Shown here in pieces: positions 26,412-51,088 of a stretch of 60,786 bases of DNA; the stretch's first letter is position 1, and each line of letters opens with the position of its first letter. Source of the stretch: a virus; the IMG/VR virus record IMGVR_UViG_3300034062_002901, positions 1-60,786 of that record; one strand, given 5' to 3'. The position numbers were made by a program, and so were the translations under genes. The notes beneath the pieces were generated by a model. The model saw only the letters and a program-made list of their open reading frames with translations, was not told the DNA's origin and did not search any database.

Positions 26412-26762
26412 ATGGCCTTCGCATCCGGCAAGTTCTCCAACGCGTTGTGCGACTACTGTGGCCAGCGGTACAAGTACAACACCCTGCGCAAAAACTGGCG
26501 GGGGTTTATGGTGTGCCCGGATGACTACGAGCCTAAAGAGCCTCAGCTTGAGCCGCTTCGCTACCGGGGTGATGCGATCGCGCTGCGCGATCCGCGTCCC
26601 GACCGAATTGAGCCGGTGTCGGTCTTCGTGGGCGCCCCAGGCTTCACGGCGTTTCAAAGCTACGGCAGCGTCCAAGGCGGCACTAACATGCAGCCATATC
26701 TGCAGGGCCAAGCGCTCATCGCGCAGGGCGCTATCGGAACAGTGACAGTGAGCACCTCATGA
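26412..26762 (+). CDS. Conserved zinc-ribbon-like virion-region protein
   Basis: A 116-residue protein with an N-terminal CDYCGQRYKYNTLRKNWRGF followed by a third cysteine in MVCPDDYEPK, suggesting a small metal-binding knot (C-x2-C ... C). The rest is Pro/Gly-rich with RDPRPDRIEP and a Gln/Gly-rich end. It lies between two adaptor-like genes and overlaps the second by four bases. The role is unknown; a neck component by position. Confidence 0.8.
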   Translation: MAFASGKFSNALCDYCGQRYKYNTLRKNWRGFMVCPDDYEPKEPQLEPLRYRGDAIALRDPRPDRIEPVSVFVGAPGFTAFQSYGSVQGGTNMQPYLQGQALIAQGAIGTVTVSTS

Positions 26763-35833: not shown

Positions 35834-36325
35834 ATGATAGACCCATTCACCGCCCTAGCTGCTGTAAACACAGCAATCAAGCTCGTCAAGGCTACGGTTA
35901 AGACCGTCCAGAACCTTGAGAGTCTAGGGCCGTGTCTGGGTCAGTTCTTTGGCGCTAAAGCTGAAGCAATTAAGGTAGTCAAGGCCGGTGGATTCAAAGG
36001 CTCTGCAATGGGTCAGGCGCTTGAGTTAGAAATGGCGATTGAGTCTGCCAGAGCGTTTGAAGAAGAAGTGAAGATGCTGTTCTTTCAGTCCAACAAAATG
36101 GACGTATGGCAAAAGATCGTTGCCCGTGCTTCTACCATTACAAGCGCCCAGATTCAAGCGGAGCGCCGTGAACGAGAAGCCAAGAAACGCCGTGCTGCTG
36201 AGATTGATGAGTTGCTAACTATTATCTTGATACTGTTTGTCACTGCTGTAGTAATAGGAATTGTTGGTTGGTTTATATGGGAAGCTGTTCGGCAATGCGC
36301 TCCTAATTGTGGTTATAACCGTTGA
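35834..36325 (+). CDS. Membrane protein beside the lysis genes
   Basis: A 163-residue protein: an N-terminal helical domain (TALAAVNTAIKLVKATVKTV), a middle helix rich in charged residues (AQIQAERREREAKKRRAAE) and one C-terminal membrane span (LTIILILFVTAVVIGIVGWF). Similar proteins with this layout occur just before holins in environmental podoviruses and may be internal or lysis-related. It is not a recognisable spanin (no lipobox). It is followed nine bases later by the holin start. Confidence 0.75.
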   Translation: MIDPFTALAAVNTAIKLVKATVKTVQNLESLGPCLGQFFGAKAEAIKVVKAGGFKGSAMGQALELEMAIESARAFEEEVKMLFFQSNKMDVWQKIVARASTITSAQIQAERREREAKKRRAAEIDELLTIILILFVTAVVIGIVGWFIWEAVRQCAPNCGYNR

Positions 36326-36333
36326 GGACTGAC

Positions 36334-36789
36334 ATGGACACACTACTTAGCATCTTAAAGAACGTGGCTCCGGGTATCGCTACTCTAGTAGCTGGGCCTG
36401 CTGGAGGTGCAGTTGTTTCTGCACTAGCGGCTAAGTTCGGGGTATCTGATACCGTTGAGGAAGTTGCCAAAGCTATTGCAGGTGATCCCGCTGCGGCGCA
36501 GAAGCTGGCTGAGATGGACTTGGAAAAGTTTCGCATTGAAGAAGCCGCTGTAACCTCACGCTGGGAAGCTGACATGGGTTCAGACTCATGGCTGTCCAAG
36601 AACATCCGCCCAATGGCGCTGATTGCTATCTTTGTAGCGTTCTTCTTGTTTACGATGATGTCAGCGTTTGGCTACAACGCACAAGAATCCTACGTGCAAC
36701 TGCTAGGCCAGTGGGGTCAGATCATCTTCCTCGCCTATTTTGGTGGTCGCACAATTGAAAAGTTGGCTGACATGAAGGCTAAGAAATGA
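36334..36789 (+). CDS. Holin of the 3-TM type
   Basis: A 151-residue protein of the 'holin of 3TMs' type. An amphipathic alanine/glycine-rich first segment (IATLVAGPAGGAVVSALAA), a charged middle helix with DLEKFRIEEAAVTSRWE, then two hydrophobic spans (MALIAIFVAFFLFTMMSAFG and WGQIIFLAYFGGRTIEKL). It would permeabilise the inner membrane to release or activate the endolysin. The ATG at 36334 is chosen because it directly follows GAGG; an upstream TTG adds four residues. Its stop overlaps the endolysin start. Confidence 0.82.
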   Translation: MDTLLSILKNVAPGIATLVAGPAGGAVVSALAAKFGVSDTVEEVAKAIAGDPAAAQKLAEMDLEKFRIEEAAVTSRWEADMGSDSWLSKNIRPMALIAIFVAFFLFTMMSAFGYNAQESYVQLLGQWGQIIFLAYFGGRTIEKLADMKAKK

Positions 36790-37250
36790 ACCTCACAACC
36801 AATTTTTCCTTGCACGAGTTAACCAAGAGCGAGGCCGCGCTACGCCATGACATGGACAACACGCCGTCGCCAAGGGCCTTGGCTAATCTACAGGCTTTGG
36901 CCACCGCCGTCCTGCAGCCCGTGCGCGATCACTTTGCGCGGGGCGTGAAGGTCAACTCGGGCTACCGCAGCCCTGATGTAAACGCCAAGGTCGGCGGCTC
37001 GCGGACCTCGGACCACTGCCAAGGCATGGCCGCTGACATCGAAATACCGGGCGTTCCCAACCACCAACTGGCCGAGTGGATTCAAGGCAATCTCCCCTAT
37101 ACACAACTGATCTTAGAGTTTTATACTCGTGGGGTGCCCGATTCCGGTTGGGTGCATGTTTCGTACAACCCCGACAATTTAAAAAAACAAGACCTTACCG
37201 CCGTGAAAGAGAACGGCAAAACCGTCTACTTAAACGGCCTGTCGGCCTAA
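36786..37250 (+). CDS. Endolysin, peptidase M15 family
   Basis: A 154-residue M15A-type peptidase that cleaves peptide bonds in peptidoglycan. Zinc ligands are visible: His77 and Asp84 in SDHCQGMAADI and His124 in WVHVSY. The upstream VNSGYRSPDVNAKVGG (56-71) is also typical. The length is normal for a single-domain enzyme and no signal peptide is present, so it needs the holin. It overlaps the holin stop (ATGA), giving a holin-endolysin lysis pair. Confidence 0.92.
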   Translation: MNLTTNFSLHELTKSEAALRHDMDNTPSPRALANLQALATAVLQPVRDHFARGVKVNSGYRSPDVNAKVGGSRTSDHCQGMAADIEIPGVPNHQLAEWIQGNLPYTQLILEFYTRGVPDSGWVHVSYNPDNLKKQDLTAVKENGKTVYLNGLSA

Positions 37251-37261
37251 AGGAGCCCTTT

Positions 37262-37453
37262 GTGCCTGTAACTAAACCAAAGCCAAAATCCACGGTCAAT
37301 GCCGCAGGCAACTACACCAAGCCGAGCATGCGCAAGGCGTTGTTTGGCAAAATCAAAGCCGGCACGGCGGGCGGAGACCCTGGGGAATGGTCCGCGAGAA
37401 AAGCCCAGCTGTTGGCCAAGCAATACAAGGCCAAAGGCGGGGGCTACAAGTGA
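37262..37453 (+). CDS. Small basic conserved phage protein, GTG start
   Basis: A 63-residue basic protein starting at GTG 37262 after AAAGGAGCC. The pattern is NAAGNYTKPSMRKALFGKIK, then GEWSARKAQLLAKQYK and a GGGYK end. Similar proteins occur in many phages and some giant viruses and are uncharacterised. Its last codons overlap the start of the next gene (GTGA at 37450-37453). Together with the next gene it looks like a pair. Confidence 0.78.
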   Translation: MPVTKPKPKSTVNAAGNYTKPSMRKALFGKIKAGTAGGDPGEWSARKAQLLAKQYKAKGGGYK

Positions 37454-37680
37454 AAGACCCCCAAAAATCCCTGAAGGACTGGGGCGATCAGAAGTGGCGT
37501 ACCTCCGACGGCAAGCCCAGCAAGGGCAAAAAGCGTTACCTGCCTGACGCGGCATGGGGCGCTTTGTCGCCTGGCGAGAAGGCGGCCACCAACCGAGCTA
37601 AATCCAAGGGCAACGCCAAAGGCAAGCAGTTTGTAAAACAGCCAAAAACCGTTGCCAAAAAAACAGCAGGGTACAGATAA
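37450..37680 (+). CDS. DUF5872-like small basic protein, GTG start
   Basis: A 76-residue basic protein starting at GTG 37450, which overlaps the preceding stop. The pattern SLKDWGDQKWRTSDGKPSKG, RYLPDAAWGALSPGEKAATN and KGNAKGKQFVKQP matches what I recall as DUF5872, a family shared by phages and large DNA viruses (name from memory). The function is unknown; the basic character and recurrence beside virion genes suggest nucleic-acid contact. Confidence 0.8.
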   Translation: MKDPQKSLKDWGDQKWRTSDGKPSKGKKRYLPDAAWGALSPGEKAATNRAKSKGNAKGKQFVKQPKTVAKKTAGYR

Positions 37681-37683
37681 GTT

Positions 37684-39534
37684 ATGGCACTTCTTCGACT
37701 TGCTCTCAAACCAGGTATTGACAAGCAGAACACCGAGTACGGCGCTGAGGGCGGCTGGGTGGACGCAGACTACGTGCGCTTTCGTTATGGCTTGCCTGAA
37801 AAGCTGGGCGGCTGGACAAGGTTTGGTGGCAGCCTTATAGACTTTGTGGGTTCCACAAGCGACATCTTTACTTGGAATGACTTGAAGGGTGCGCCTTATG
37901 CCGCCTTGGGCACCAACCGCAAGGTCTATGCCTTTTACGGGGGTGCGTGGGCGGACATTACTCCCATCCGTGCTACTGGTGCGTGCACCTTTACCACCAC
38001 CAATGGCAGCACTACGGTGACTGTCAACGACGCGCTACACGGGGCGGTTGTGGGCGACTTTGTCACTTTTGACACGGTCACAGGCAACCCGGGCGGCATT
38101 CCCAATGCAAGCCTAGAAAACGAATTTGAAATCCAACTGGTACCGAGTGACGGCACCTACACCATTTTGTCCCCCACCGCCGCCACCGGCACCGCTTCTA
38201 CGGTTGGAACGGCCACTGCCACTTACCAGATCAACGTCGGAAGCGACGTCAGCTTTGTCGATTTTGGTTGGGGCGTCGGCACTTGGGGCTTAAGCACTTG
38301 GGGCACGCCGCGCCCCGCTACTTCGTCCATTACCCTGTTAGCACGGACATGGCAGTTTGACAACTACGGCCAAGACTTGGTGATGCAGTTGGTGGACGGC
38401 GGTATATACGAGTGGGACCCAAGCACGGGCCTTAACACGCGGGCCACGGCTATCGCTGGTGCCCCCACAAAAAGCAAGTTTGCGATCATCTCCACGCCTG
38501 ACCGGCACTTAGTCTGCTTTGGCACGGAGTCCACGCTTGGCGATCCGACAAGCCAAGACCCAATGTTTGTGCGCTTTTCTAGCCAAGAAAGCATTGGCGA
38601 GTTTGTGGCCACAGCAACGAACACGGCCGGCGGACAACGGCTCACGGACGGCAATGAAATCGTTTCGGCGCTGCGTTCGCGCGGCCAGATTTTAATTTGG
38701 ACAGACACTTCCCTGCACGGCCAGCAATTCCTTGGCCCGCCATTTACCTTCGGCTTTCAACAGCTGGGCGCCAATTGCGGCATTATTGGCCCGCACGCAT
38801 CGGCCGACGTCAACGGCGTGGCATATTGGATGAGCAAGGACGCGTTTTTTGTCTTTGACGGTACGGTCAAGAAAATTCCTTGCACCGTGCAGGACTACGT
38901 TTTTGAGGACCTAAATATTGCGCAGGCCCCCTCTGTGAACGTAGGCATTAACACCCAGTTCAATGAAGTCACCTGGTTCTATGCAACGCTTAACAGCGAC
39001 TATGTCAACCGCTTTGTAACGTACAACTACATGGAAAATGTGTGGTCGATTGGCTCTATGGCGCGCACGGCATGGACGGATATCGGGACGTTTGATAATC
39101 CCTTGGCCACAAAGTACGAGCCGCTGAACAACGAGCCCACCCTCACCACAATTTATGGTCTCACGGCAGGCCGGAGCTATCTGTACAACCAAGAAGAGGG
39201 GGTAGACGACGATGGCCAGCCCATAGACGCTTTCCTGTACTCGGGCTACTTTGACATCGGGGACGGAGACCAAGTGCTGTTTATGAAACGCTTCATTCCT
39301 GACTTCAAGCGCCAAACGGGGGACCTAACAGTCCGGCTGCTCTTGCGCCTTTATCCACAAACGAGCGCCACCCCAAGCTCGCTGGACCCGTACATCATCA
39401 CGCCCACCACAGACAAGGTGGATACGCGCGCGCGCGGCCGGCAGATTCAGCTTCGTATTGAGAGCGACGAGCTTAACGGCTGGTGGCGCTATGGCACGAT
39501 GCGTGTCGACATCGTTCCTGATGGGTTGAGATGA
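37684..39534 (+). CDS. Tail hub/stabilisation-like virion protein
   Basis: A 616-residue protein. The N terminus (RLALKPGIDKQNTEYGAEGG, then VRFRYGLPEKLGGWTRF) and a propeller-like series of repeated strands with GxxW turns are typical of a large class of podovirus neck/tail proteins similar in layout to P22 gp10 (packaged-DNA stabilisation). Inserted at about residues 100-180 is a beta module (GAVVGDFVTFDTVTGN). The C-terminal part (RFIPDFKRQTGDLTVRLL) closes the structure. It likely sits under the adaptor ring; this is inference from layout and position. Confidence 0.78.
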   Translation: MALLRLALKPGIDKQNTEYGAEGGWVDADYVRFRYGLPEKLGGWTRFGGSLIDFVGSTSDIFTWNDLKGAPYAALGTNRKVYAFYGGAWADITPIRATGACTFTTTNGSTTVTVNDALHGAVVGDFVTFDTVTGNPGGIPNASLENEFEIQLVPSDGTYTILSPTAATGTASTVGTATATYQINVGSDVSFVDFGWGVGTWGLSTWGTPRPATSSITLLARTWQFDNYGQDLVMQLVDGGIYEWDPSTGLNTRATAIAGAPTKSKFAIISTPDRHLVCFGTESTLGDPTSQDPMFVRFSSQESIGEFVATATNTAGGQRLTDGNEIVSALRSRGQILIWTDTSLHGQQFLGPPFTFGFQQLGANCGIIGPHASADVNGVAYWMSKDAFFVFDGTVKKIPCTVQDYVFEDLNIAQAPSVNVGINTQFNEVTWFYATLNSDYVNRFVTYNYMENVWSIGSMARTAWTDIGTFDNPLATKYEPLNNEPTLTTIYGLTAGRSYLYNQEEGVDDDGQPIDAFLYSGYFDIGDGDQVLFMKRFIPDFKRQTGDLTVRLLLRLYPQTSATPSSLDPYIITPTTDKVDTRARGRQIQLRIESDELNGWWRYGTMRVDIVPDGLR

Positions 39535-39707
39535 GCAAGATTACCAACGTCCGGCTGCCTAACGCCTCCCCGTCAGGCTACGACCCTTCCCAGTTCAACC
39601 AACTGGTACGCTCGCTTGAGCAGATTATTCTTCAGCTTAACAGCACTTACACCCCTGTTGTCACGGAGGACAAGGACCAAGCGCAAACTTGGTTTTTTGG
39701 AAAATAA
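39531..39707 (+). CDS. Hypothetical 58-residue virion-region protein
   Basis: A short gene with ATG at 39531 overlapping the preceding stop (ATGA) and its own stop overlapping the next start (TAATG at 39705-39709). The protein begins MSKITNVRLPNASPSGYDPS and continues with a helix QLVRSLEQIILQLNSTY. Tight overlaps at both ends support it as a real gene. Small proteins like this occur next to tail hub genes; the function is unknown. Confidence 0.78.
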   Translation: MSKITNVRLPNASPSGYDPSQFNQLVRSLEQIILQLNSTYTPVVTEDKDQAQTWFFGK

Positions 39708-40045
39708 TGGGAAACGCATACAAACGCTATAACGAGACACTGGTAACAGCAACGCCAAAGGTGGTGTTGACGGTTCCTGCGGCTACAACGGCTATCGTCA
39801 AATCTATTTGGATAGCAAACGCAAACGCGGCAAGCACCAATATAACCGTCACCTTTTCCCCTGGCGGAAGCGGAACACACTATTTAGTGCCTTCGGAAGC
39901 AGTAGCCTCTAACGTGTATGTAGACCTCTTGGCCGGTTGGAACGCGGGCCCTCTAGTACTTGAGCAACTTGACGCGTTGACGGTCACATCTTCGCAGAGC
40001 ACTGTTTACGTTGTAGTAAGCGCTCTTTTAGTGGACAGAAGTTAA
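39707..40045 (+). CDS. Small beta-rich structural protein
   Basis: A 112-residue protein (MGNAYKRYNETLVTATPKVV; then AAATTAIVKSIWIANANAAS, TNITVTFSPGGSGTHYLVP, and DALTVTSSQSTVYVVVSALL). It has the look of a compact beta-sandwich virion protein of the type often placed near tail genes. The ATG at 39707 overlaps the stop of the small gene before it. Function inferred only. Confidence 0.78.
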   Translation: MGNAYKRYNETLVTATPKVVLTVPAATTAIVKSIWIANANAASTNITVTFSPGGSGTHYLVPSEAVASNVYVDLLAGWNAGPLVLEQLDALTVTSSQSTVYVVVSALLVDRS

Positions 40046-40061
40046 AAATTTAATGGATAAT
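40032..40061 (+). promoter_or_regulatory. Possible promoter for the internal virion protein genes
   Basis: TGGACA (40032-40037), an 18-base spacer and GATAAT (40056-40061) lie in the 86-base gap before the run of four large genes. The -10 is followed by CTTGTCAA, related to the ACTTGTCAA box at 674. The match is moderate and the -35 lies in the preceding gene's end. Confidence 0.45.
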
Positions 40062-40131
40062 CTTGTCAATCTCGCGTCCTTCCCCAGCGCGCGGCCCATG
40101 AGGCCTTTGGCAAAAACTAAAAAGGACCATC

Positions 40132-42141
40132 ATGGCAAATGAAGGAATCATGGCGCTACCCCAAGGGGAAGCCATGCCGAGCGAAGAAGCTCAAGATCAA
40201 CGGCCCACTGTCACGAGTGCGCAATCGTACGACGCCGCCCAAACAGCCTTGGGCATGACCCGCCCCGACGACCTTGCAATGCTCAAGGAGTCGTTGCGCC
40301 AAAACATGGCGGAAGTGGACTTAAAACCCGCTGAATTGGCCGCTTTTATTAACTTGTTGGAATACATCTCTCAGCGCCCTGCCGAGTACAGCCAAATCCG
40401 TCAAAAGCTTATTGACGACGACCTTGTCGACCCTGAGGACATGCCGGAGGAGTACGACGTTGAATTTATCGGCACGATGCTGGCCGTACTGAACGAAGTA
40501 CAGATGAGCCAAGCACAGGGCGCGCAAGCCCCCATGATGGACATGCCTCCCGTTGAAGGGGCGGATGCCATGCAAGGCATGGGCCCCATGCAGCCGATGG
40601 CCATGGCCGAGGGCGGGTTGGCCGACGTGGCCTCTTACTTGGCCGCACAGGGTCGCCATGGTGACACCATGCTGGCGCACATCACACCCGAGGAAGCACA
40701 GCTCCTCAAAGACCGTGGCGGCTCTGGCACGATCAACCCGGTTACCGGCTTGCCTGAGTTCTTTAAATTTTTGAAGAAGATATGGAAGGGCGTGACCTCC
40801 GTTGCAAGGAAAGTGCTTAAAAGCCCAATTGGCCGCATCTTGGCGACCGTTGCGTTGGCCATGGTCCTCGGGCCAGGGGCAGCGGGCTTTTCAGGCTTTG
40901 GCTTGTCTGCCGGAACGGCAGCGGGCCTAGCCTCTGGCGCGGTGACCCTAGCAGGCGGCGGCTCCATTAAGGACGCGCTCGTCTCTGGCGCGATGGGCTA
41001 CATTGGGGGCGGCGGAACGGTCATGGGTGCCAATCCCTTGGCATCGGTTGGCCAATACCTTCCCGGTGCGGCAGGTAGCGCGCTAAATACAGGTTTGACC
41101 ACCGGCGCCATCGGCGCAGGTATTGGCAAGCTGAGTGGCATGAGCACCCAAGACGCCTTACGCATGGGCCTGACTTCTGGCGCATCGGCCGCAGCACTGA
41201 CTGGCCTGCAGAACACGAGCCAAGCGGCGCTTGGGGGAGGGACAGCTCAAGACCTCTTGAATGCGCAAGCTGCCAGCGGCGATGGAACAGGTTTGCAACT
41301 GCCACCGGGCGCTGCCCCGGAGCCGGGATATACCGTAGCAGGAAACACTGTTCCTCCTGCCGGCGCCCCCGTACAGGCGCCCGTTGACGCCTCTTCTGCC
41401 CTGCAGCTGCCGCCGGGCGCTGCCCCGGAGCCGGGGTATACCGTAGCGGGTGCCAAGCCCGGCTTTTTTGATGAAATGACCACCGGGGCCAAGAACTTGT
41501 ACTCAGAATACTTGTCTCCTAGCCGCCCGGGAATGGCGGCAGATGCGGGCATGTTCACCAAGTACGCTCCATTGGCAGCAGCCGGAACAGCTGCCATCGG
41601 TCTGGCGGGGGGCATGAAGAGCGAGCCGGTAAACCAAAACCCGGCATTTAACCGCGCCTACACGGGCTCGGACTACATGCGGGATAACCCTGCCCAATTT
41701 GCAGGTGGCCTAAGTACTTACACGCGCCCGGACATCCCTGCAAATCCGATCGTCCCGACGCCGTCTTATGCCAGCATTCCAGTTGGCCCGCCGGGCATGA
41801 TCACTCCTGGCGGCATCACCCAGCAGCCGAGCGGGATAGCCCAGCCGTACAACATGGCAGGTCTGTACGGCGTGCCGTTGATCTATGGCCCGGATGGCCA
41901 GCCCCAGCGTATGGCTAAGGGCGGAGACGCAAAGCCCACAAACTTTCCCCGCAAAAACGGCCCTGTCAACGGCCCCGGCACGGGAACCTCGGATGAAATT
42001 CCCGCCATGCTGTCGGACGGTGAATTTGTGTTCACGGCCAAGGCAGTGCGCAATGCCGGCAGCGGAAGTCGTCGCAAGGGTGCGGCGCGCATGTACAAGC
42101 TCATGAAAATGCTTGAGGGCGGCCCGGTCAAGGGGAAATAA
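40132..42141 (+). CDS. Internal virion protein A, Gly/Ala-rich
   Basis: A 669-residue protein. Residues 1-150 are acidic helices (DPEDMPEEYDVEFIGTMLAV). About 160-210 carry MAEGGLADVASYLAAQGRHG and MLAHITPEEAQLLKDRGG, a motif common in phage internal proteins. Residues 230-390 are Gly/Ala-rich hydrophobic stretches (ATVALAMVLGPGAAGFSGFG) that could insert into membrane. LQLPPGAAPEPGYTVAG is repeated twice at about 385-440. The end has SDEIPAMLSDGEFVFTAKAV. This is probably an ejected protein of the DNA-delivery channel. Confidence 0.8.
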   Translation: MANEGIMALPQGEAMPSEEAQDQRPTVTSAQSYDAAQTALGMTRPDDLAMLKESLRQNMAEVDLKPAELAAFINLLEYISQRPAEYSQIRQKLIDDDLVDPEDMPEEYDVEFIGTMLAVLNEVQMSQAQGAQAPMMDMPPVEGADAMQGMGPMQPMAMAEGGLADVASYLAAQGRHGDTMLAHITPEEAQLLKDRGGSGTINPVTGLPEFFKFLKKIWKGVTSVARKVLKSPIGRILATVALAMVLGPGAAGFSGFGLSAGTAAGLASGAVTLAGGGSIKDALVSGAMGYIGGGGTVMGANPLASVGQYLPGAAGSALNTGLTTGAIGAGIGKLSGMSTQDALRMGLTSGASAAALTGLQNTSQAALGGGTAQDLLNAQAASGDGTGLQLPPGAAPEPGYTVAGNTVPPAGAPVQAPVDASSALQLPPGAAPEPGYTVAGAKPGFFDEMTTGAKNLYSEYLSPSRPGMAADAGMFTKYAPLAAAGTAAIGLAGGMKSEPVNQNPAFNRAYTGSDYMRDNPAQFAGGLSTYTRPDIPANPIVPTPSYASIPVGPPGMITPGGITQQPSGIAQPYNMAGLYGVPLIYGPDGQPQRMAKGGDAKPTNFPRKNGPVNGPGTGTSDEIPAMLSDGEFVFTAKAVRNAGSGSRRKGAARMYKLMKMLEGGPVKGK

Positions 42142-44994
42142 ATGGCAGAAGAAACAGTCACACAACAGATCGTCCGGGAAGCCCCGGAGATTGAGGCGTA
42201 CAAGCTAAAGCTGCTGCAGGAAGCCCAGAAACTGGCCTTCAACCAAAGCGGCGGACAGACGCTTGCCCAGCAACTCCCCGGCTACCAAGTAGCAGGGTTT
42301 TCCCCTGCACAACAGGCTGCCCTGCGATCTGCCGAAACGCAAGGCGTTGGAGCTTTTACACCGTACATGACCGCAGCCAATCAGGCACTTGGTGGGGCTT
42401 ACCAGACCACGGGTGAAGCGGCAGACATCCTGCGCGGAGCAGACACGCGCCAGCAGTTCACCGACGCACAGCGGGCCATAGGCCAAGCTGGAGGCGCCAC
42501 TGCCGGCATCACCTCTGGCATCGGCCAAATCGGCCAAGGTCTGGGTTACTTGGACGTTGCCGCGCAGCGCGCAGCAGCATCCGACACCACCGGTCAGTTT
42601 GGTGCTGCTCGCCAAGATATTGGAGCGGGCCTCGGAGCGCTGGCCACGGGCCAGAATATGGCCGCTTTGTCCAGCCAAGCCAACCTCCAGCCTGCAACGT
42701 CAGCCATTGCCCAAGGCATTGGGGGCCTGACTCAAGCGCAGCAGTTGGCGCTTGGCGCAGGCGGCGCAGACTTTAGCGGCTCTCAGGCCTTGCTTGGCCA
42801 AGCGGCCGGTCAGCTTCAAAGTGCGCAGCCTCAGTTTGGCCAAGCGCAACAGACCATGCAACAAGGCCTTGGCCAAGGCCAGCAGGCTATTGGCATGGCC
42901 GCGCAAGCTGCCCGGCAGCCGGGCTTCTTGGCGCAAAACGTGGCCCTTGGCCAAGCCATGGGGGCAGCCCGACAGGCCGGTCCATCTGATTTCAGTGGCG
43001 CTTTCCAAGGCTTGCAGGGCGCAGGCGACGATGCCATGATGGCTTCCATCATGGCGCAGCAGGCAGCGCAGCAGCCCGGGTTTGGCCAAGCCGTTGGCCA
43101 AGGCCAGCAGGCCATTCAGATGGCGCAGCAGGCAGCGCAGCAGCCCGGGATGCAGCAAGGTGTCAGCGCAGCCTTTGATGCAGCGCAGCAGGCCCGCATG
43201 GCAGCAGCGCAGCCCGGTTTTGACCGCGCCCAGCAGACCGGAATGCAGGCCGCGCAAGCGGCCATGGCCGCAGCGGCCCAGCCCGGGTTTGGTCAAGCGG
43301 AGTCCGCGCTCCAGCAGGGACTCGGTCAGCTTGGCGGTGCCACGCAGCGCTTTGACCCTGCTTCTGCGCAGAACTTTATGGACCCGTATCGCCAACAGGT
43401 GATTGACGAGGCCATGCGTCAAATGGATCGTCAGGGGCAGATTGCGCAGCAGGGCCTGTCGGCTCAAGCGGTGCGCTCGGGTGCCTTTGGTGGTGAGCGT
43501 GAAGGGGTGCAACGTGCAGAGATGCAACGCAACCTGATGGATCAAAAGTCCAGCACCATTGCCAACCTTTTGTCGCAAGGTTTTAGCCAGTCTCAGGCAC
43601 AGGCCATGCAGGCGTTTGAACAGCAACAGGGCCGTCAGATGCAGGCGGGGCAGGGCATTGGTCAACTGGGCGCACAGCAGGCACAAGTAGCTGCTCAACA
43701 AGCAGGACTGCAGCAAGCAGGTGCCCAAGCCTTGGCCGGGCAAGCGGGACTGCAGTCGGGCATTGCCGCTCAACAAGCAGGCTTTGGCCAGCAAGCGGCC
43801 CAGCAATTGGCCCAAGCAGGACAGCTCCAAACCAGCACGGCCGCTCAACAGGCAGGCTTTGGCCAGCAAGCTGCTCAATTAGCCGCTCAACAAGCGGGCC
43901 TGCAGGGCCAGCTCGCCGGTCAACAAGGCCAGCTCGGCCTTCAAGCCGCGCAGCAGCGCTTTCAAGAGGCCGGGTTTGACGCTCAAACCGCCATGCAAAT
44001 GGCTCAACTGCAACAGACACAGGCAAGCCAAGCGGGCCAACAGTCTCAATTGATGCAAGGCATCGGGGGCCTGTATGGTCAAAGCGCTCAAGCACAGGGC
44101 GGGCTGCAACAGCAAGCTGCTCAGTTGGCGGCGCAGCAGGCAGGACTTGGCGTGCAAGCAGGTAGCCAGATGGGTAACTTGGAAGCACAGCGCGCTCAGT
44201 TTGGCCAAGCCGCCGCAGGGCAGTTGGCCAACATCGGCCAGACCGTAGGTTCGCAAGCTGCGCAGCAGGCTCAACTTGGCCAAGCAGCGGCGGGTCTTTA
44301 CGGCAACCTAGCACAAAACCAAATTGGCGCAGGGCAGGGCCTCGGACAGCTCGGCGTGCAGCAGGCTCAACTTGGCCAAGGCGCAGCAGGGCAGTTTCTG
44401 CAGGCAGGGCAGCAGTACGGCAACTTGGCCTCCCAAGGCGGCGCACTGGCGGGCCAAGAGGCTTCAATCAACCAGAACATCGCCAACTTGATGATGCAGC
44501 AGTCACAGGCGCGCAACCAAGCGGCTCAGGCAGCGGCAGGTATTTACGGTCAGCAGGCGGGCCAGTTCCAGCAGCTTGGCCAAGGCATCGGCCAGTTGGC
44601 ATCGCAACAGTTTGGCATTGGGCAGCAGCAAGCGCAGGGCTTGGGCGCTCTTGCCGGCCAGTTAGGCCAGCTTGGCGTGCAGCAAGGTGCACTGGGCCAG
44701 ACCGCTCAAGCGCTGCAGCAAGGGGACGTTAACTTTTTGTACAACGTCGGCCAGTCCCAGCAGGCCTTCAATCAGCAGTCGATCGACGCGCAACGTGCTA
44801 CGGAGCTGCAGAAGGTTTACGCCCCATATCAGCAAGCAGGCTTCCTGTCGGACATCTACAAGGGCGCTCCGTCCACGCAGATGTCCACGGCCGTGGCCAG
44901 CCAGCCTTCGGCAAGTCCCTTCCAGCAAGCGGTCGGTATTGGTCTGGGTGCCGTGGCAACTGCGGCAGCCGCCTCAAAGGCAAAACTTTTCTAA
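42142..44994 (+). CDS. Internal virion protein B, Gln/Ala-rich repetitive
   Basis: A 950-residue protein made mostly of Gln, Ala and Gly. From about residue 150 to 860 it is built from short variable repeats such as QAAQQPGFGQA, QAGLQQAGAQAL and GQAAAGLYGNLAQNQ with roughly 7-11-residue periodicity, predicting very long helices or a coiled fibre. A short unique block near residues 405-460 (RQQVIDEAMRQMDRQGQI) breaks the repeat. The C terminus ends in a hydrophobic alanine-rich stretch (IGLGAVATAAAASK). It starts directly after the previous stop. An ejection-tube role by position is likely but unproven. Confidence 0.8.
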   Translation: MAEETVTQQIVREAPEIEAYKLKLLQEAQKLAFNQSGGQTLAQQLPGYQVAGFSPAQQAALRSAETQGVGAFTPYMTAANQALGGAYQTTGEAADILRGADTRQQFTDAQRAIGQAGGATAGITSGIGQIGQGLGYLDVAAQRAAASDTTGQFGAARQDIGAGLGALATGQNMAALSSQANLQPATSAIAQGIGGLTQAQQLALGAGGADFSGSQALLGQAAGQLQSAQPQFGQAQQTMQQGLGQGQQAIGMAAQAARQPGFLAQNVALGQAMGAARQAGPSDFSGAFQGLQGAGDDAMMASIMAQQAAQQPGFGQAVGQGQQAIQMAQQAAQQPGMQQGVSAAFDAAQQARMAAAQPGFDRAQQTGMQAAQAAMAAAAQPGFGQAESALQQGLGQLGGATQRFDPASAQNFMDPYRQQVIDEAMRQMDRQGQIAQQGLSAQAVRSGAFGGEREGVQRAEMQRNLMDQKSSTIANLLSQGFSQSQAQAMQAFEQQQGRQMQAGQGIGQLGAQQAQVAAQQAGLQQAGAQALAGQAGLQSGIAAQQAGFGQQAAQQLAQAGQLQTSTAAQQAGFGQQAAQLAAQQAGLQGQLAGQQGQLGLQAAQQRFQEAGFDAQTAMQMAQLQQTQASQAGQQSQLMQGIGGLYGQSAQAQGGLQQQAAQLAAQQAGLGVQAGSQMGNLEAQRAQFGQAAAGQLANIGQTVGSQAAQQAQLGQAAAGLYGNLAQNQIGAGQGLGQLGVQQAQLGQGAAGQFLQAGQQYGNLASQGGALAGQEASINQNIANLMMQQSQARNQAAQAAAGIYGQQAGQFQQLGQGIGQLASQQFGIGQQQAQGLGALAGQLGQLGVQQGALGQTAQALQQGDVNFLYNVGQSQQAFNQQSIDAQRATELQKVYAPYQQAGFLSDIYKGAPSTQMSTAVASQPSASPFQQAVGIGLGAVATAAAASKAKLF

Positions 44995-45003
44995 GAGGTT
45001 GAC

Positions 45004-47067
45004 ATGAACAAGAATATGATGAAACAGGGCGACGGAATTGAAAACGTCGGAATCATGCAGGGCTTCATGAACTCCATGTCTGACGAGGGCGACGGAGAAG
45101 ACGAGGGCGAAGACGGCTACGGCACTGAAATGACGATGGAGCGCCGACCTGATTCCCCTGAAATACTGATGAACAACCTACGGGGCGACATGCGCTCTAT
45201 CGACGCTCGTCGTGACGAGTTAGCCGACCTCGTAGGTTACCAAGCTGCTACTGAGACGCCTGAGCAGGTGCTTGCAATGCTGCAGCCTATTCTTGCGCAG
45301 CAAGGTGGTGGCGGTATTGGCGCGCTGCCCCAATCACAAGACATGGCCCAAGGGCCACAGCCCCCGATGATGGGTGGCGCTCCTAATATGCCTCCTCCCG
45401 GCATGCCCCCGATGCCTCCTCCCGGCATGCCCCCGATGCCTCCTGACGCCGGTATGGCGCCACCTCCCGACCAAGGCGGCATTGCCGCGCTGATGGCGGG
45501 CATGGGTGCTGCCGGCAGCGCACCCCCTGCCGAGCAGGGTATGGCGCCACCTCAGGGCCAGCCAATGGCCATGGCAAGAGGAGGCTACGTCCAAAATTTT
45601 CAAACAGGGTCTAACGAAGAAGGCGTGACCCCTGTTGGACAAAGCCCTTCCGAAGACTTGATGATGTACCCCCCTGACATGGTGGCTGCGGCAAAGAAAG
45701 CTTCCTTGGACTTGTTCCAGCAGCAGCCTGCTGCCACGCAGACCTTGGGGCAGGCCACTGCATCACGCCTGCCAGAGTACACCAAGCTGCTGGGTGCTGA
45801 CCGGGGCGCGTCTGAGGCGCAGATGCTGTTTGATCTCGGACAACGGGCCTTTGGCTTTGCTGGCAATGTGGACGACTCAGGTCGCCCACTGCGCGGCAGC
45901 TTCATGGCGCGCTTGGCCGGGGCCGCCCGCACATTGCCCGCTGCCATGGGCAAACGCATTGACGAGATTAGCAAGATTGACCGGCAGATCAAAATACTGG
46001 CTCTCCAGCAGGGCGAGAAAAGCATCGAGCAAGTTACCGCTCAGAATAACGAGCTGCAAAAGCGCAAAGGCAGCCTGATCAACGAAGTACTGCGCGCCCA
46101 AGCAAAAGTCGACGCCAAGAAGGCCGGGGAAAAGCCCACAGGCCCCCTCGGCAAAGGCAGCAAGGGCGACATCTTGAACAACATCATTGAGTTTGCTCCG
46201 CTGTTTCAAGCAGGCTCTTTGACGCCAAGCCAAGAGAACGCCTTTATGACGGCTGTCACGGACTACACGCAGCCGACGACGATTGAGACCACAGACCCTG
46301 AGACAGGTCTCAAGTCCCTGCGCACGCAGCGCAATCAGCTGCCTAAGTTTGTCACAGACGCATTGAATGCCCGACGCCCCGGCAGCGCGCCTGCTCCGCT
46401 TTCCGTCACGGGCGCCGTCGGTGGTGCGGCGCGTCCAGCGCTTAGTACGGCCCCAGCAGTGGCTCCCCTTATGGGGGCGACTTCGGACAATGTGGCACCT
46501 GAGGTTTTCCAAGCGGCTGCTGCGGCTCCCAAGTCGAGCTTTTTTGACTTGGCCGCCACAGGTACGGGCTTTGTCCCCGTGCTGGTTGCAGGCGCTGCGC
46601 GCAACGTGCCTTTGGACGTGGCGGGCAGGATGGCCCCTGACTTCCAGCAGAGCACTGCCATGCTGGAAAGCATGACCAATCGGGTGGTTAACGTCTTGCA
46701 AGAGAACCCCCGTTTTGCTGATGCCGAGCGTAAACAGATTTTGGGCGAGCTCAACATCGCTCCTCGATTGTTTGCTAACAAGAACGGCTACATCAACCAA
46801 ATCATCGCTTTGGACAACGTGGTTGAAGGGCTTCAGGGCAGGGCGGAAAGAGTCCGGGACGAGCCAAAGACCGGCATCACAGCGCGTAACGACGCTATCA
46901 AGAAGCTTGAGGACATCGCCTCTATCCGCGATCTTTTTGGTATCCAGCAGCGCACGATCACTGACCCCAAAGTGTGGGCAACATTGCCCCCGGGTGAGTA
47001 CGTCGTGATCAATCCCCAAACAGGGTTTAAAGAAGTGCGCCCTAAATACCAAGGTCCTGCAAGGTAA
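45004..47067 (+). CDS. Internal virion protein C
   Basis: A 687-residue protein. The first 60 residues are Met-rich and acidic (SDEGDGEDEGEDGYG), then a helical segment, then a proline/methionine-rich low-complexity part (residues about 115-185) with two copies of GMPPMPPP. From about 230 it becomes helical and charged, with IDEISKIDRQIKILALQQGE; later parts are less repetitive. The mix of flexible proline-rich and helical parts fits a protein that unfolds for ejection. No enzymatic motif is visible. Its start is nine bases after the previous stop. Confidence 0.8.
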   Translation: MNKNMMKQGDGIENVGIMQGFMNSMSDEGDGEDEGEDGYGTEMTMERRPDSPEILMNNLRGDMRSIDARRDELADLVGYQAATETPEQVLAMLQPILAQQGGGGIGALPQSQDMAQGPQPPMMGGAPNMPPPGMPPMPPPGMPPMPPDAGMAPPPDQGGIAALMAGMGAAGSAPPAEQGMAPPQGQPMAMARGGYVQNFQTGSNEEGVTPVGQSPSEDLMMYPPDMVAAAKKASLDLFQQQPAATQTLGQATASRLPEYTKLLGADRGASEAQMLFDLGQRAFGFAGNVDDSGRPLRGSFMARLAGAARTLPAAMGKRIDEISKIDRQIKILALQQGEKSIEQVTAQNNELQKRKGSLINEVLRAQAKVDAKKAGEKPTGPLGKGSKGDILNNIIEFAPLFQAGSLTPSQENAFMTAVTDYTQPTTIETTDPETGLKSLRTQRNQLPKFVTDALNARRPGSAPAPLSVTGAVGGAARPALSTAPAVAPLMGATSDNVAPEVFQAAAAAPKSSFFDLAATGTGFVPVLVAGAARNVPLDVAGRMAPDFQQSTAMLESMTNRVVNVLQENPRFADAERKQILGELNIAPRLFANKNGYINQIIALDNVVEGLQGRAERVRDEPKTGITARNDAIKKLEDIASIRDLFGIQQRTITDPKVWATLPPGEYVVINPQTGFKEVRPKYQGPAR

Positions 47068-47073
47068 CAAGAC

Positions 47074-50000
47074 ATGGCAAAAGCTCCTACCATTGACGAT
47101 CTGTTCCCCACTGGAACACGGCCCGAGGCTGGCCCAAGCCCCGCAGAGATCGAGGCAGCGAGCAGGCCTGCGTTTTACCCTAAGGCAGGGCAAAGCACCG
47201 CGCCAACGGGACAAGCGCCTCAAGCGGGCTCTTTGGATGAGCTGTTCCCCACAGGCGGGTTACCTGAGCCAGGCCTTGGCGACTACGCCGGAACGGTGGC
47301 CAAGGGTGCTGCCGCCGGCGCACTCCGTGATTCGCCAGTCGTGGCCGGTGCCCTGTCGGGCTTTAAGCTGGGCATGCCCTTGGCCGCAAAAGCAGCCCCC
47401 TTTATCGGGGGCGTTGCCGCAGGCATTCCGCTGGTCACCACCGCAGTTGGCGGCTACTTGGGCTACCAAGCTGGTCAAGCGGCTGAGGGCTTCATTCCCG
47501 AGGAGACCGACCCACGGCTCGTGCCTTACCGAGAAGGAGGAAAAACCTTTGGCTCGTCTATTGCCACTGCTCCCGCTGCGTTCTTCTTGCCCACTGCTGG
47601 CCCCACCGCTGGACGTGTGGCCAAGTTTGTTTCGGGTATTGGAGAGACAGCGCGCCGCAGCCCCGGCGTGTTCATGGCCACTGAAGGCCTGACCGCCGCC
47701 AGCATGGGCTTGGCCGGTGGCGCAGCAGAAACCTACCGTCCTGGCCAAGAAGGCGTGCGCTTTGGTGCGGAGCTGGGCGCAGGCTTGCTGACTCCAACCA
47801 AATTGCTGCTTAGTGGCGTTGATTTGGCCAAGACAGGCTTGTCGTCTATCAAAGGCGCTGCGGGCGGCCGCAGTGCTGCTACGGAACGAAAGGCTGTCGG
47901 CCTTTTGCTCGACGCCCTGAACAAGAGCGGCGAGGACTCAGACGCGCTGATTAAGGCGCTGCGCACGCAGCTGCCCGGCACCGTTCCGTCCCCCACGGCT
48001 GGCCAAAAGACTGGCAGCCAAGCGCTCATGGACTTGGAAGCATCCCTTGGCAACCACCGCGCCCAGTTTGGCGGCGAGACTGCCAAGCAAGGTCGCACTG
48101 CGTTTTTAGCCTACCAAGAACTGGTGGGTAAGCTGCAAGAACTCGGCGACCCACAGGCTTTGCGAATCGCGGCCGAGCTGCAGCAAAAGCGCTTTGACAA
48201 CATGATCGAGACGCGTCTGTCGTTGGCCGACGCCAACGCAGCCGCCAAGATTGCTAGGATCACCAAGGACACCCCCGAGGCTCGCAAGCAAATTGGCCAG
48301 TTGGTCAAAAACGAGACCGAACTGGCCTTGGCTGAGACACGTGATGTAGAGGGTCAACTGTGGACCTCTGCGCTGGAAAGCTTGACCAAGCCTGTGACAA
48401 CCATGCAGGTGTCCAAGGTGCCGATGGAAGGCATTGAGGCGCAGCGCATCTTTGACCGCACTGGCAAGCGTCCGATGATAAGCCTTCCTGCCATGCCGAT
48501 CAGAAAAGCCCCAACACTGGTGCCCACTGCAACGGCGGACTCTTTCTTGGCACGTGCGTCCGAAATGGGTCCTGCCCTGTTCGACGAGATTCCTCCGCAG
48601 GTACGCAAGATCATGGGGACTTTCGGCATTGACGAGTCCTCAGTGGCCCAGTTCCGTAACGGCAAGCTCTCCGATGACTATCTGCAGACCGGTCGAGTGC
48701 CCTCGAACTTCATGCCAAAGATCAAGGAACAGCCCGTTCAAGACATGGTGAACTACCGGTCTACTTTGCTGAAGATGGCACGTGATTCGGCAGGAGCGGG
48801 CGACGCCAACAAGGCTAGCTTCTTCAGCAACATGGCCGACGGCATGATGCGGGACCTGGACACGCTCCAAGACCCGATGTATGACCAAGCGCGCCAGTTC
48901 TCGCGCTCGCTCAACGACGTCTTTACCCGCACTTACGCCAACACAGTCGGCGCTGTGGCCAAGACAGGCAGGGATCGTGTGCCGCCAGAGACGCTGGTGC
49001 TCAACGCCTTTAGTGGCAACGCCGACCAGACCGCTCTGCGGATGAAGGAAATCGAAGACGCTGTCGGCTTCATGCGCACGCAGTACCGCGAGGTTGTCAA
49101 ACAGTTCGGCATCGACAGCCCGCAAGCCCAACAGCTCCTGCCCCTAGCCCGCGCTGCAACCACCAACGTCGCGTCCGTTCGTGACGCGCATAACCGTGTG
49201 CTGCGTTTGGCTGCTGCAAATTCCATAGAGGTCGTTCCAGGACGTGATCCGGGGACTTTTGTCCAGAAGGTCAACTTGGGCAAGCTCACCAAGTTTGCGC
49301 AGCAAAATGCCCCTCTGTTGGAAAAGATGGGCATCATGGGAGACTTGCGGGACGCGGCCCACGCGTCTAACTTGCTCACCCAAGTGACCAACGAGAACAG
49401 CGCGCTGTCCAAAGTAGCCAAGAATCAATCCGCCTTTGCCCAGATGTTGACCGCCGAGAGCCCTACCGTCGTGATTGCGGACAGCTTAAATGGCCGCTTC
49501 CCAGTTAAAAGCATCAACGGCTTGGTGGACTTGGCCAAGAAGGGCGGCCCTGACGCGCTGGACGGTTTGAAATCCTCGCTGTTTGACTACGCCTACACAA
49601 AGGCCAACGGCTACAGCGGCAAGTTCAGCCCTGACGCCTATTCAACAGCCATGTTTGAGCCGCTCGGCCGCAACCAGCCGTCGCTTGTAAACATCATGCG
49701 CAGCAACGGGCTGATGACCTTGACAGAGATGTCAAACCTCAAAAAGCTCCTTACGCCAATGCAGCGCATTGAGACTGCCATCAAGAACAACATTCCCTAC
49801 GAGGACGTGATTCAAGGGGCGGATGCGGTGACCGAGCTGGCGCTGCGTGTTGCGGGTGCTCAGATTGGCACAGCCGCTGCACCCAGCGGCCCCGGTAGTC
49901 TGATTGCAGCCTCCGCAGGCTCCAAGGCGGTGCGCCAAATCTTTGACGCGTTGCCCAATGCCACCGTGCGCACCATTTTGGAGAACGCGGCCAAGGACCC

Positions 50001-50406
50001 TCAGGCCATGGCCCTACTCCTGCAAAAAGGGCGCACGGAAAAAGAGCAGATCGACATCGCCAACAAGCTGATTAACTACGTGGGCTCATTGGGTGTGTCG
50101 ATTGGCAAGAGCGCTGTCACTCCTGCGTTGAACTACCTGTCCGCAGATAGCGACCGCCCCGCTCCGACTGCTCAAACGTCACCGTTCACGCAACAAGGCC
50201 AAGCGGCGCGCCAGTTACGCCAACTACCCACAGCTCCGGGAACACGTGGTGTGCCGGGGCTCAATAAAGCGGACGAAAAGAAGCCCCCAAGCGGCCCGCA
50301 GTCCAGTGGCCCGCCAACTAAAGCCAACGCTCGCAGCATGTACGCCTCGCTGTTCCCGTTTGACACAGTCAGCCCTATGGCGGCTGCTCAACCGGCGCCG
50401 CAGTAA
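47074..50406 (+). CDS. Internal virion protein D, 1110 residues
   Basis: A very long protein. The N terminus repeats DLFPTG/ELFPTG (residues about 8 and 53), followed by a Gly/Ala-rich hydrophobic region (about 85-160; PLAAKAAPFIGGVAAGIPLV). The main part (200-1000) is helical with long charged stretches, and the C terminus is proline-rich. This is the arrangement of large podovirus ejection proteins (hydrophobic N-terminal part, long helical body). No lytic transglycosylase motif is recognised. Its 3' end overlaps the convergent exonuclease gene by 32 bases (50375-50406). Confidence 0.8.
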   Translation: MAKAPTIDDLFPTGTRPEAGPSPAEIEAASRPAFYPKAGQSTAPTGQAPQAGSLDELFPTGGLPEPGLGDYAGTVAKGAAAGALRDSPVVAGALSGFKLGMPLAAKAAPFIGGVAAGIPLVTTAVGGYLGYQAGQAAEGFIPEETDPRLVPYREGGKTFGSSIATAPAAFFLPTAGPTAGRVAKFVSGIGETARRSPGVFMATEGLTAASMGLAGGAAETYRPGQEGVRFGAELGAGLLTPTKLLLSGVDLAKTGLSSIKGAAGGRSAATERKAVGLLLDALNKSGEDSDALIKALRTQLPGTVPSPTAGQKTGSQALMDLEASLGNHRAQFGGETAKQGRTAFLAYQELVGKLQELGDPQALRIAAELQQKRFDNMIETRLSLADANAAAKIARITKDTPEARKQIGQLVKNETELALAETRDVEGQLWTSALESLTKPVTTMQVSKVPMEGIEAQRIFDRTGKRPMISLPAMPIRKAPTLVPTATADSFLARASEMGPALFDEIPPQVRKIMGTFGIDESSVAQFRNGKLSDDYLQTGRVPSNFMPKIKEQPVQDMVNYRSTLLKMARDSAGAGDANKASFFSNMADGMMRDLDTLQDPMYDQARQFSRSLNDVFTRTYANTVGAVAKTGRDRVPPETLVLNAFSGNADQTALRMKEIEDAVGFMRTQYREVVKQFGIDSPQAQQLLPLARAATTNVASVRDAHNRVLRLAAANSIEVVPGRDPGTFVQKVNLGKLTKFAQQNAPLLEKMGIMGDLRDAAHASNLLTQVTNENSALSKVAKNQSAFAQMLTAESPTVVIADSLNGRFPVKSINGLVDLAKKGGPDALDGLKSSLFDYAYTKANGYSGKFSPDAYSTAMFEPLGRNQPSLVNIMRSNGLMTLTEMSNLKKLLTPMQRIETAIKNNIPYEDVIQGADAVTELALRVAGAQIGTAAAPSGPGSLIAASAGSKAVRQIFDALPNATVRTILENAAKDPQAMALLLQKGRTEKEQIDIANKLINYVGSLGVSIGKSAVTPALNYLSADSDRPAPTAQTSPFTQQGQAARQLRQLPTAPGTRGVPGLNKADEKKPPSGPQSSGPPTKANARSMYASLFPFDTVSPMAAAQPAPQ

Positions 50407-51088
50407 TGCGTGACGTCTCGTAGGCTTGTACCCGCTCCATCCACTGGGCCTTGAAGGTCTGCCATTCTCGGCCCGTGATGGTGAACTCTTGGGTCGTTCC
50501 ATCCTGCACGGAAACCAGCACGGCGGCAAAATCAATGTCGGTCCCGTACATTGCGTCGTGGGCCATGGCATATGCTGCGAGCTGGTGAAAATAATCGGTA
50601 ATGTACTCGTAGCGCTTGGACTTGACCGACTGCTTAAAGTCGATAATGGCCAGCTTGCCTCGGTACGTGGCCACCATGTCCGTCGTGCCGGCGTACCGGT
50701 GCCCGTAGTGCAGTGACACCTCCGAACCGTGAATCTTGGAGATCGCACCGAAGTACTTGTTGGCCAAGGTAAACGCCATCTGGTGGCCCTTCATGGCCAG
50801 CCAATCACGGCCAACGGCCAACGGCTTGCCCTCCAAGATGCATTCTAAGGTGTAGTGCATGGTGGTGCCGATGTAGGAGGCCTGCTCTTTTTGCCTGTCA
50901 GCTTCTGCTTGGCCAATGCGCTCGGCCCATGCTATGAGCGCGGTCTTGTCCTTGGTGCTGTCCAAGATTGTTGTGACGGAGGGGACGTGTTCATTATTTG
51001 GCAAAACGTATACACGTCCCGTAGACGCGTCGATTCTTTCGAGTTTTTTATACACAAACTCGTTTGACCAAGGAATCAGATCAGCCAT
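50375..51088 (-). CDS. RecB/Cas4-like PD-(D/E)XK exonuclease
   Basis: A 237-residue nuclease of the RecB/AddB-C-like fold. The expected catalytic order is visible: GTTMHYTLE (His and Glu near residues 77-81), a TTDMVATYRG strand with Asp near 136, IIDFKQS (Asp and Lys near 149-151), and a QLAAYAMAH motif (the Q-A-x-Y helix). It resembles phage exonucleases that process DNA ends. It overlaps the SNF2 gene at its start by 13 bases and the convergent virion gene at its end. Confidence 0.87.
   Translation of the reverse strand: MADLIPWSNEFVYKKLERIDASTGRVYVLPNNEHVPSVTTILDSTKDKTALIAWAERIGQAEADRQKEQASYIGTTMHYTLECILEGKPLAVGRDWLAMKGHQMAFTLANKYFGAISKIHGSEVSLHYGHRYAGTTDMVATYRGKLAIIDFKQSVKSKRYEYITDYFHQLAAYAMAHDAMYGTDIDFAAVLVSVQDGTTQEFTITGREWQTFKAQWMERVQAYETSRITAAPVEQPP

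What the first reader, a model, noticed from the sequence alone, without database searches (positions are those of the whole stretch)
42142..44994. 950-residue Gln/Ala/Gly repeat protein
Seen: nearly the whole protein is built of short degenerate QA-rich repeats with 7-11-residue periodicity. Inference: a very long helical fibre or tube inside the virion. It sits in a run of four giant genes that together would make an ejection machine without T7-type motifs.
Basis: partly seen in the sequence, partly recalled or inferred. Interest (0 to 1): 0.5.

Follow-up and report, generated by a model that had tools for sequence, protein, structure and literature searches.

The report
Length-tunable hairpin phage ejection protein
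A phage protein, probably injected into the host ahead of the viral DNA, appears to be a long helical hairpin whose two arms gain and lose repeat modules in step among related viruses, which suggests a DNA-entry part of evolvable length.

Summary
The ORF is real: 950 aa, 60% Q+A+G. It is not one uniform repeat but two arrays, ~23-residue modules with Pro-Gly turns (arm A) and proline-free ~25-residue modules with a 3.56-residue helical period (arm B), on either side of a GAFGG.REGV tip. Relatives are compact (264-390 aa) or expanded (548-1405 aa). The two array lengths are locked: 58 of 61 anchored expanded proteins fit armA = 0.909 x armB - 188.9 (residual SD 0.94 aa; the fit leaves out three exceptions); in 59 of 62 anchored compact relatives the pairs form a ladder, mostly of 7:7 steps. 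In 195 of 201 close pairs both arms changed by matched amounts, at sites equally far from the tip. N-terminal and neighbouring-gene lengths do not follow. This is the signature of an antiparallel helical hairpin. PHROG matches, gene order and a fused relative point to the first ejection-protein slot, that of T7 gp14, itself an antiparallel hairpin that extends the tail channel. Best reading: such a hairpin stretched to ~60 nm here, if straight. Hairpin: strongly supported. Ejection role: likely. Channel and host-tuned length: inferred. No sequence homology to gp14/gp7 was found; AlphaFold confidence was low.

The parts
42142..44994 (+). hairpin ejection-type protein, 950 aa
   Evidence: family
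42142..42342 (+). conserved N-terminal block (aa 1-67)
   Evidence: shared with the 294-aa DSL-LC04 homolog
42343..43374 (+). arm A (aa 68-411); length-variable ~23-residue modules from about aa 186, with PG[FM] turns at aa 260, 312, 335, 358, 381
   Evidence: AF2 shows helices of roughly 14-24 residues with breaks, low confidence
43375..43509 (+). hairpin tip, FMDPY ... GAFGGEREGV (aa 412-456); 35 residues from FMDPY to GAFG in 61 of 61 anchored proteins
   Evidence: confident helix-turn-helix in the compact L047 model
43510..44730 (+). arm B (aa 457-863), no proline in this protein's arm B, ~25-residue modules, 3.56-residue period
44731..44991 (+). conserved C-terminal block (aa 864-950)
   Evidence: weak phrog_4287 match lies at aa 820-943
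40132..42141 (+). upstream partner, 669 aa, ~40 C-terminal residues resemble tape-measure proteins
   Evidence: named tape measure in DSL-LC04
45004..47067 (+). downstream partner, 687 aa, second-slot ejection candidate by position
   Evidence: no PHROG or Pfam match
47074..50406 (+). downstream partner, 1110 aa, third-slot ejection candidate; homolog named 'DNA transfer protein' in DSL-LC04

Best explanation
The protein is an internal virion (ejection) protein in the first slot of an ejection block. It folds as a long antiparallel alpha-helical hairpin: arm A runs to a tip at GAFGG.REGV and arm B runs back. Modules are gained and lost in matched pairs, one in each arm at the same distance from the tip, so the arms keep equal axial length (about 25 residues of continuous helix, ~37 A, in arm B against about 23 residues of helix plus Pro-Gly turn in arm A). 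By analogy with T7 gp14, several hairpins would line up after ejection as a helical channel that prolongs the short tail towards or through the outer membrane; arms here would be about six times longer than in compact relatives. Shown: architecture, quantised lengths, paired indels, gene order, family matches. Inferred: that the pairing is within one chain, ejection, the channel, and that something at the host surface selects length.
For: Length lock: 58 of 61 anchored expanded proteins on one line, residual SD 0.94, maximum 3.0 aa, arm B 250-535 aa, 20 distinct pairs; independent contrasts r 0.986 with all 61, 0.9999 without the three exceptions; 0 of 1000 permutations. Control: N-terminal length against arm B r -0.07, C-tail 44-46 aa, tip 35 aa in 61 of 61. 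Compact relatives: 59 of 62 anchored (of 79) on the ladder (23,112)(30,119)(37,126)(44,133)(51,140)(72,165); contrasts r 0.998, n 58. Close pairs: 195 of 201 coordinated. Gap sites: d2 = 0.98 d1 + 48.6, r 0.954 over 34 events; r 0.90 on proximal edges of 20 collapsed events, 0 of 20000 in the null. Arm-B lengths are whole turns at 3.565 residues (R 0.963; 0 of 5000), matching the period found from composition. No proline in 15,975 arm-B residues of 61 proteins. Compact L047 model: confident helix, turn at GAFGGG, helix. Role: phrog_4287 matches; SLT or hydrolase gene downstream in CV-1-33, DB2 and MJing1; one ORF in MW202675 joins the homolog, an S74 domain and an SLT internal-virion domain. 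T7 gp14 after ejection: six copies of two antiparallel helices extending the channel (PMC11784390, section 8 read).
Against: No sequence similarity to T7 gp14, P22 gp7/gp20 or Sf6 gp11 by hhalign, and those fall in other PHROGs. The window protein itself matches phrog_4287 only weakly (E 0.0082). AF2 confidence is low (53.7 and 67.8) and no solved fold matched. Four expanded proteins break the length rule: L182 +26, L200 -72, L028 -156 and L210 -44; none of L200, L028, L210 entered the close-pair count with a partner of 85% identity. Some relatives carry a C-terminal Peptidase_S74 domain, typical of tail fibres and spikes (recalled), and BFVD lists fibre-like names. First-slot ejection proteins are described as nearly constant in size, 181-240 aa (PMC8954989, passages). 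No proteomics.
Confidence: 0.55

Rival explanations
1. It is a helical fibre or needle of the tail, perhaps a trimer of hairpins, exposed on the particle; its length sets how far it reaches.
For: S74 intramolecular-chaperone domains at the C-terminus of relatives in Ochrobactrum phage OH, Octadecabacter DB virus 2, L133 (and, below cut-off, L056); fibre or spike names in some records.
Against: Window and expanded proteins lack S74 in the scans made (P0001; L028, L200); gene order and the SLT-fused relative point to internal virion proteins; phrog_4287 is labelled DNA ejection.
Confidence: 0.15
2. It stays in the head as a core or DNA-organising rod and is not part of the conduit; paired arms only keep the rod straight.
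For: Long helical hairpin and virion gene block; ejection proteins of T7 form a core stack before release (PMC8954989, passages).
Against: Arms of 60-110 nm if straight exceed the likely inner width of a head for ~60 kb (inference); contigs of similar size (about 54-65 kb) carry proteins of 585-950 aa, so length does not obviously follow head size.
Confidence: 0.17
3. The two arrays pair between subunits, or both pack on a third partner, so lengths co-vary without an intramolecular hairpin.
For: Length data cannot tell intra- from intermolecular antiparallel pairing; no structure is known.
Against: Three tested neighbours show no length relation (Spearman 0.06, -0.01, -0.00; a fourth 0.18, p 0.43); constant 35-residue tip and the confident helix-turn-helix of L047 favour a hairpin.
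Confidence: 0.1
4. Neutral repeat expansion or assembly collapse of repeats; no selected structure.
For: Expanded members were found only in metagenomic contigs and MAGs, apart from none in the named phage collection; repeats invite copy-number change.
Against: Matched change in two arrays separated by a constant tip, same length pairs recurring in distinct proteins, e.g. (183,410) in 9 and (39,250) in 8, whole-turn lengths, diverged copies.
Confidence: 0.03

Closest known systems
PHROG phrog_4287 'DNA ejection protein' (compact members in Phage DSL-LC04, pelagiphages HTVC023P and HTVC027P, Chlorobiaceae phage CV-1-33, Ochrobactrum phage vB_OspP_OH, Octadecabacter DB virus 2, Microcystis phage MJing1)
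   Same: Same N-terminal, tip and C-terminal blocks; compact relatives match over most of the profile and obey the same arm-length line where both arms could be anchored.
   Different: Window protein is three times longer, with two repeat arrays; the profile's last part (S74 in OH and DB2) is missing.
Bacteriophage T7 gp14 (and P22 gp7 by slot)
   Same: First of three ejection genes; two antiparallel helices joined by a short loop after ejection (PMC11784390, section 8).
   Different: No detectable sequence similarity; gp14-like proteins are 181-240 aa (PMC8954989, passages).
Bacterial chemoreceptor cytoplasmic hairpin
   Same: Hairpin length varies by symmetric heptad insertions or deletions in both arms (PMC5907407, passage).
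   Different: Unrelated sequence and function; modules here are mostly 25/23 residues.
Tail tape measure proteins
   Same: Long helical repeat proteins whose length matters (recalled).
   Different: No tape-measure family matches this protein; the neighbour with a tape-measure-like end does not vary with it.

Membership tests
phrog_4287 DNA ejection protein | Profile match over most of the family length | tested here: inconclusive
   Window protein only E 0.0082 over profile 188-315 of 392; compact relatives, aligned to it in A1/A3 or sharing its blocks, match at 7e-9 to 3e-10 over most of the profile.
phrog_4287 DNA ejection protein | C-terminal Peptidase_S74 as in OH and DB2 members (not known to be required) | tested here: not met
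   No Pfam match in P0001; L028 and L200 none; also absent from the compact members of A3.
T7 gp14-like first-slot ejection protein | First gene of a three-gene block before two larger ejection genes | tested here: met
   950, 687, 1110 aa in order; relatives have SLT or hydrolase downstream.
T7 gp14-like first-slot ejection protein | Antiparallel two-helix hairpin | tested here: inconclusive
   Inferred strongly from paired indels; no confident full-length model.
T7 gp14-like first-slot ejection protein | Sequence homology to T7 gp14 or P22 gp7 | tested here: not met
   hhalign probability 0.1-0.3%, with single-sequence templates; PHROGs differ.
T7 gp14-like first-slot ejection protein | About 200 aa | tested here: not met
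   950 aa against 181-240 aa (PMC8954989, passages).
T7 gp14-like first-slot ejection protein | In virion, then in host outer membrane | not testable with these tools
   No proteomics or imaging.
P22 gp20 / Sf6 gp12 | Sequence family | tested here: not met
   gp20 and gp12 are phrog_917/2534; hhalign to gp20 nothing.
Tail tape measure protein | Match to tape-measure families | tested here: not met
   None for P0001 in PHROGs or Pfam.

The most novel reading that the evidence does not exclude
These phages carry, packed in the head, a tail extension of genetically adjustable length: hairpins assemble on ejection into a helical DNA conduit of up to ~60 nm in this phage, and lineages retune its length module by module, in both arms at once, to the distance they must cross at the host surface.
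Probability: 0.28. Interest if true: 0.85.

Novelty: new variant of a known kind. Interest (0 to 1): 0.63.

Why it matters
What sets the reach of a short-tailed phage's transient DNA channel is, as far as I know, open. This family is a natural length series, from 23/112 to 298/535 residues (two anchor systems), with neighbours of nearly constant size, so conduit length could be related directly to host envelope, capsule or S-layer thickness. It also shows a fold being read from indel bookkeeping alone where AlphaFold struggles with low-complexity sequence, and, if the protein belongs to the first ejection slot, it departs from the size constancy stated for that class.

Tried and rejected
PDB sequence searches gave nothing useful. 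The AF2 model of P0001 (pLDDT 53.7) was not used for a fold search; the compact L047 model gave only generic helical PDB hits (none at E 0.001 or better; best VIA Z 8.3, below the level the tool advises for helical models). In BFVD 16 matches reached E 0.001, mostly unnamed phage proteins, some labelled chaperone auto-processing. hhalign to P22 gp7, gp20, Sf6 gp11 and T7 gp14 found nothing. First-pass anchoring went wrong twice: one search used only 24 tips, and mis-anchored arm A in the expanded set (contrast r 0.74, slope 0.78); both expanded results are superseded, while the compact result stands. One search, anchored at GVGAF, gave r 0.9988 for 56 proteins (four exceptions and four unanchored left out) with residuals up to 19 aa;'s anchors I read the larger ones as N-terminal indels or a bad anchor (L035).

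Rows dropped: the cut proteins, L002 (same as the window), L031 (start not resolved) and L047 (compact) were left out of the expanded set; 91 complete, 65 unique (64 expanded and DSL-LC04). One search used 61; L191, L203 and L210 could not be anchored and DSL-LC04 was left out on purpose. DSL-LC04 has 37 against 33 predicted, L203 321 against 309, L210 is off by -44. The line was fitted without its three exceptions. L028, L200 and L210 form one clade (support 1.000) with a different tip sequence; L182 stands apart. Compact set: 62 of 79 anchored on both sides; (23,124), (29,112) and (25,111) are off the ladder, and L061 (23,124) was left out of the tree. Of nine tip-tip compact pairs with a difference, seven are exactly 7/7, one 49/53, one 8/14. 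Gap-site events are not independent, gap placement inside repeats is uncertain by several residues, only pairs with one size-matched gap per arm were taken, and one of 34 (L144/L022) is discordant; the distance from the C-terminal base also correlates, more weakly (r 0.58). With exceptions included, arm-B length quantisation is R 0.80.

Arm A shows no clean helical period. Host inference from MAG contigs (7 hits) was not drawn. In the library searched, searches listed no paper on paired length change in phage ejection proteins by title or abstract start; that covers those words only. PMC9599517, PMC10611076, PMC10386132 and PMC11440229 were seen as passages only.

Full report
What is there. 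The ORF at 42142-44994 (+) encodes 950 residues, 60% Gln+Ala+Gly. The window is a 60,786-bp virus record. Megablast of 36000-52000 finds one named phage, DSL-LC04, which has the same order of genes around it. The gene starts on the base after a 669-aa gene and is followed by 687-aa and 1110-aa genes and then a convergent exonuclease/helicase pair.

Anatomy. Conserved blocks stand at the N-terminus, in the middle (FMDPY ... GAFGGEREGV, aa 412-456) and at the C-terminus. Arm A lies before the middle block, with ~23-residue modules and Pro-Gly-Phe/Met turns at aa 260, 312, 335, 358, 381. Arm B lies after it, with ~25-residue modules, a 3.56-residue hydrophobic period and no proline. In 31 of 32 proteins scanned the arm-B period is 3.56-3.57; L028 has 3.68. 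Some arm-B copies sit exactly 75 nt apart in the DNA, though TRF lists no array in the gene.

Family. The first IMG/VR scan gave 46 loci, a profile scan 79 (partly the same contigs), and a scan with compact relatives 80, the best of 460 among the first 600 stretches. Expanded complete proteins are 548-1405 aa with similar ends; compact ones 264-390 aa (76 complete of 80). Neighbouring genes vary far less: coefficient of variation 0.08 (n 22), 0.10 (n 59), 0.04 (n 51), 0.02 (n 16) against 0.23-0.29 for this protein, Spearman 0.18, 0.06, -0.01, -0.00.

The length rule. Between fixed motifs, arms A and B change together: 58 of 61 expanded proteins lie on one line, residual SD 0.94 residues over a 285-residue range, fitted without the exceptions L028, L182 and L200. 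Contrasts on a tree keep the relation (r 0.986 with all 61, 0.9999 without the three) and 0 of 1000 permutations reach it. Arm-B lengths are whole helical turns at 3.565 residues per turn (R 0.963, 15 distinct lengths, 0 of 5000 random sets; with exceptions R 0.80, also 0 of 5000), a value obtained from lengths alone and equal to that from composition. The N-terminal region varies from 179 to 229 residues without relation to arm B (r -0.07) and the tip is 35 residues in 61 of 61. In 59 of 62 anchored compact relatives the pairs are (23,112), (30,119), (37,126), (44,133), (51,140) or (72,165), close to the line fitted to the expanded proteins (25.7 predicted at 112). Loci not used for the fit: L213 has 44 against 44.2 predicted, L214 and L215 23 against 25.7, L212 356 against 347.6. 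L203 groups with compact DSL-LC04 (support 0.909), carries its own 25-residue repeats in both arms and lies 12 aa from the line, which suggests a second, separate expansion.

Where changes occur. Of 201 pairs at 85% identity or more with different lengths, 195 changed both arms by the matched amount; the other six all involve L182. Examples: L022/L026 44 and 50 residues, L017/L020 23 and 25, L151/L206 73 and 82. In pairs with one size-matched gap per arm, the gap in arm B lies as far from the tip as that in arm A plus a constant (d2 = 0.98 d1 + 48.6; r 0.954, 34 events; r 0.90 on proximal edges of 20 collapsed events). That is what an antiparallel hairpin turning at GAFGG requires. Chemoreceptor hairpins show the same bookkeeping in heptads (PMC5907407, passage). 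The AF2 model of compact L047, poor overall (67.8), is confident just here: helix, turn at GAFGGG, helix.

Role. Compact relatives match phrog_4287, 'DNA ejection protein'. In CV-1-33 the homolog is followed by an unknown gene and an SLT protein that shares phrog_26400 with Sf6 gp13; in DB virus 2 a cell-wall hydrolase follows directly and in MJing1 after one small gene; in MW202675 (deposited as 'Myoviridae sp.') homolog, S74 domain and SLT internal-virion domain are one 1185-aa ORF. The protein therefore sits where T7 gp14 and P22 gp7 sit. T7 gp14 after ejection is six copies of two antiparallel helices that lengthen the tail channel to the LPS (PMC11784390, section 8 read). A hairpin is thus a fitting shape for this slot, although no sequence homology was found.

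How it may work (inference). From tip to NFLYN arm B has 417 residues, 63 nm as one straight helix at 1.5 A per residue; the same count for compact relatives is about 70 residues, ~10 nm, close to T7 gp14's arms (residues 25-143 for the pair). 25 arm-B residues span ~37 A; 23 arm-A residues including a Pro-Gly turn can span the same, which would explain the 0.91 slope, while compact relatives step 7:7. The nearly uncharged Gln/Ala/Gly surface would suit a water-filled path for DNA, but that is speculation.

What is not settled. Oligomeric state (six as gp14, or trimers as S74 would suggest), location before ejection, intra- or intermolecular pairing, and what selects length. L028, L200 and L210 form a clade with another tip sequence and L182 stands alone; in these the rule is broken by 26-156 residues. 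Expanded members were seen only in metagenomic contigs and MAGs.

Noticed in passing
12053-16543 (+): 1496-aa ORF between terminase and portal without PHROG or Pfam match, with 15/27/69-nt tandem repeats at 13076-13251; DSL-LC04 has an 826-aa 'PcfJ-like protein' at that place.
   Followed up: no
30974-35578 (+): 1534-aa ORF without PHROG or Pfam match; DSL-LC04 has a concanavalin A-like lectin/glucanase protein in a comparable place.
   Followed up: no
28753-28889 and 29689-30146: Tandem repeats of 66 nt (2.1 copies) and 195 nt (2.3 copies), the second inside a 595-aa ORF.
   Followed up: no
10102-10293: Short repeats of GGCCGTGGCCATGGG type just upstream of the terminase gene.
   Followed up: no
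26759-27418 (+); 53507-54280 (+): SU10_adaptor and Pam3_Gp34 Pfam matches (E 8.8e-29 and 3.1e-65).
   Followed up: no
42700-43878 (-) and 43583-44467 (-): Long antisense ORFs (392 and 294 aa) opposite the gene, probably by-products of its Gln/Ala/Gly codons (inference).
   Followed up: no
L203:3580-6207: 876-aa protein grouping with the compact DSL-LC04 homolog yet carrying 25-residue repeats in both arms: looks like a separate expansion.
   Followed up: partly
L223:7962-11519 (MW202675): One 1185-aa ORF holds the homolog, a Peptidase_S74 domain and an SLT internal-virion domain; self-cleavage at S74 (recalled activity) could release two ejection proteins.
   Followed up: partly
window 39689-40045 (+): The 118-aa neighbour occurs as two types in relatives, about 70-86% or 35-42% identical to the window's, as if exchanged as a cassette.
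   Followed up: no
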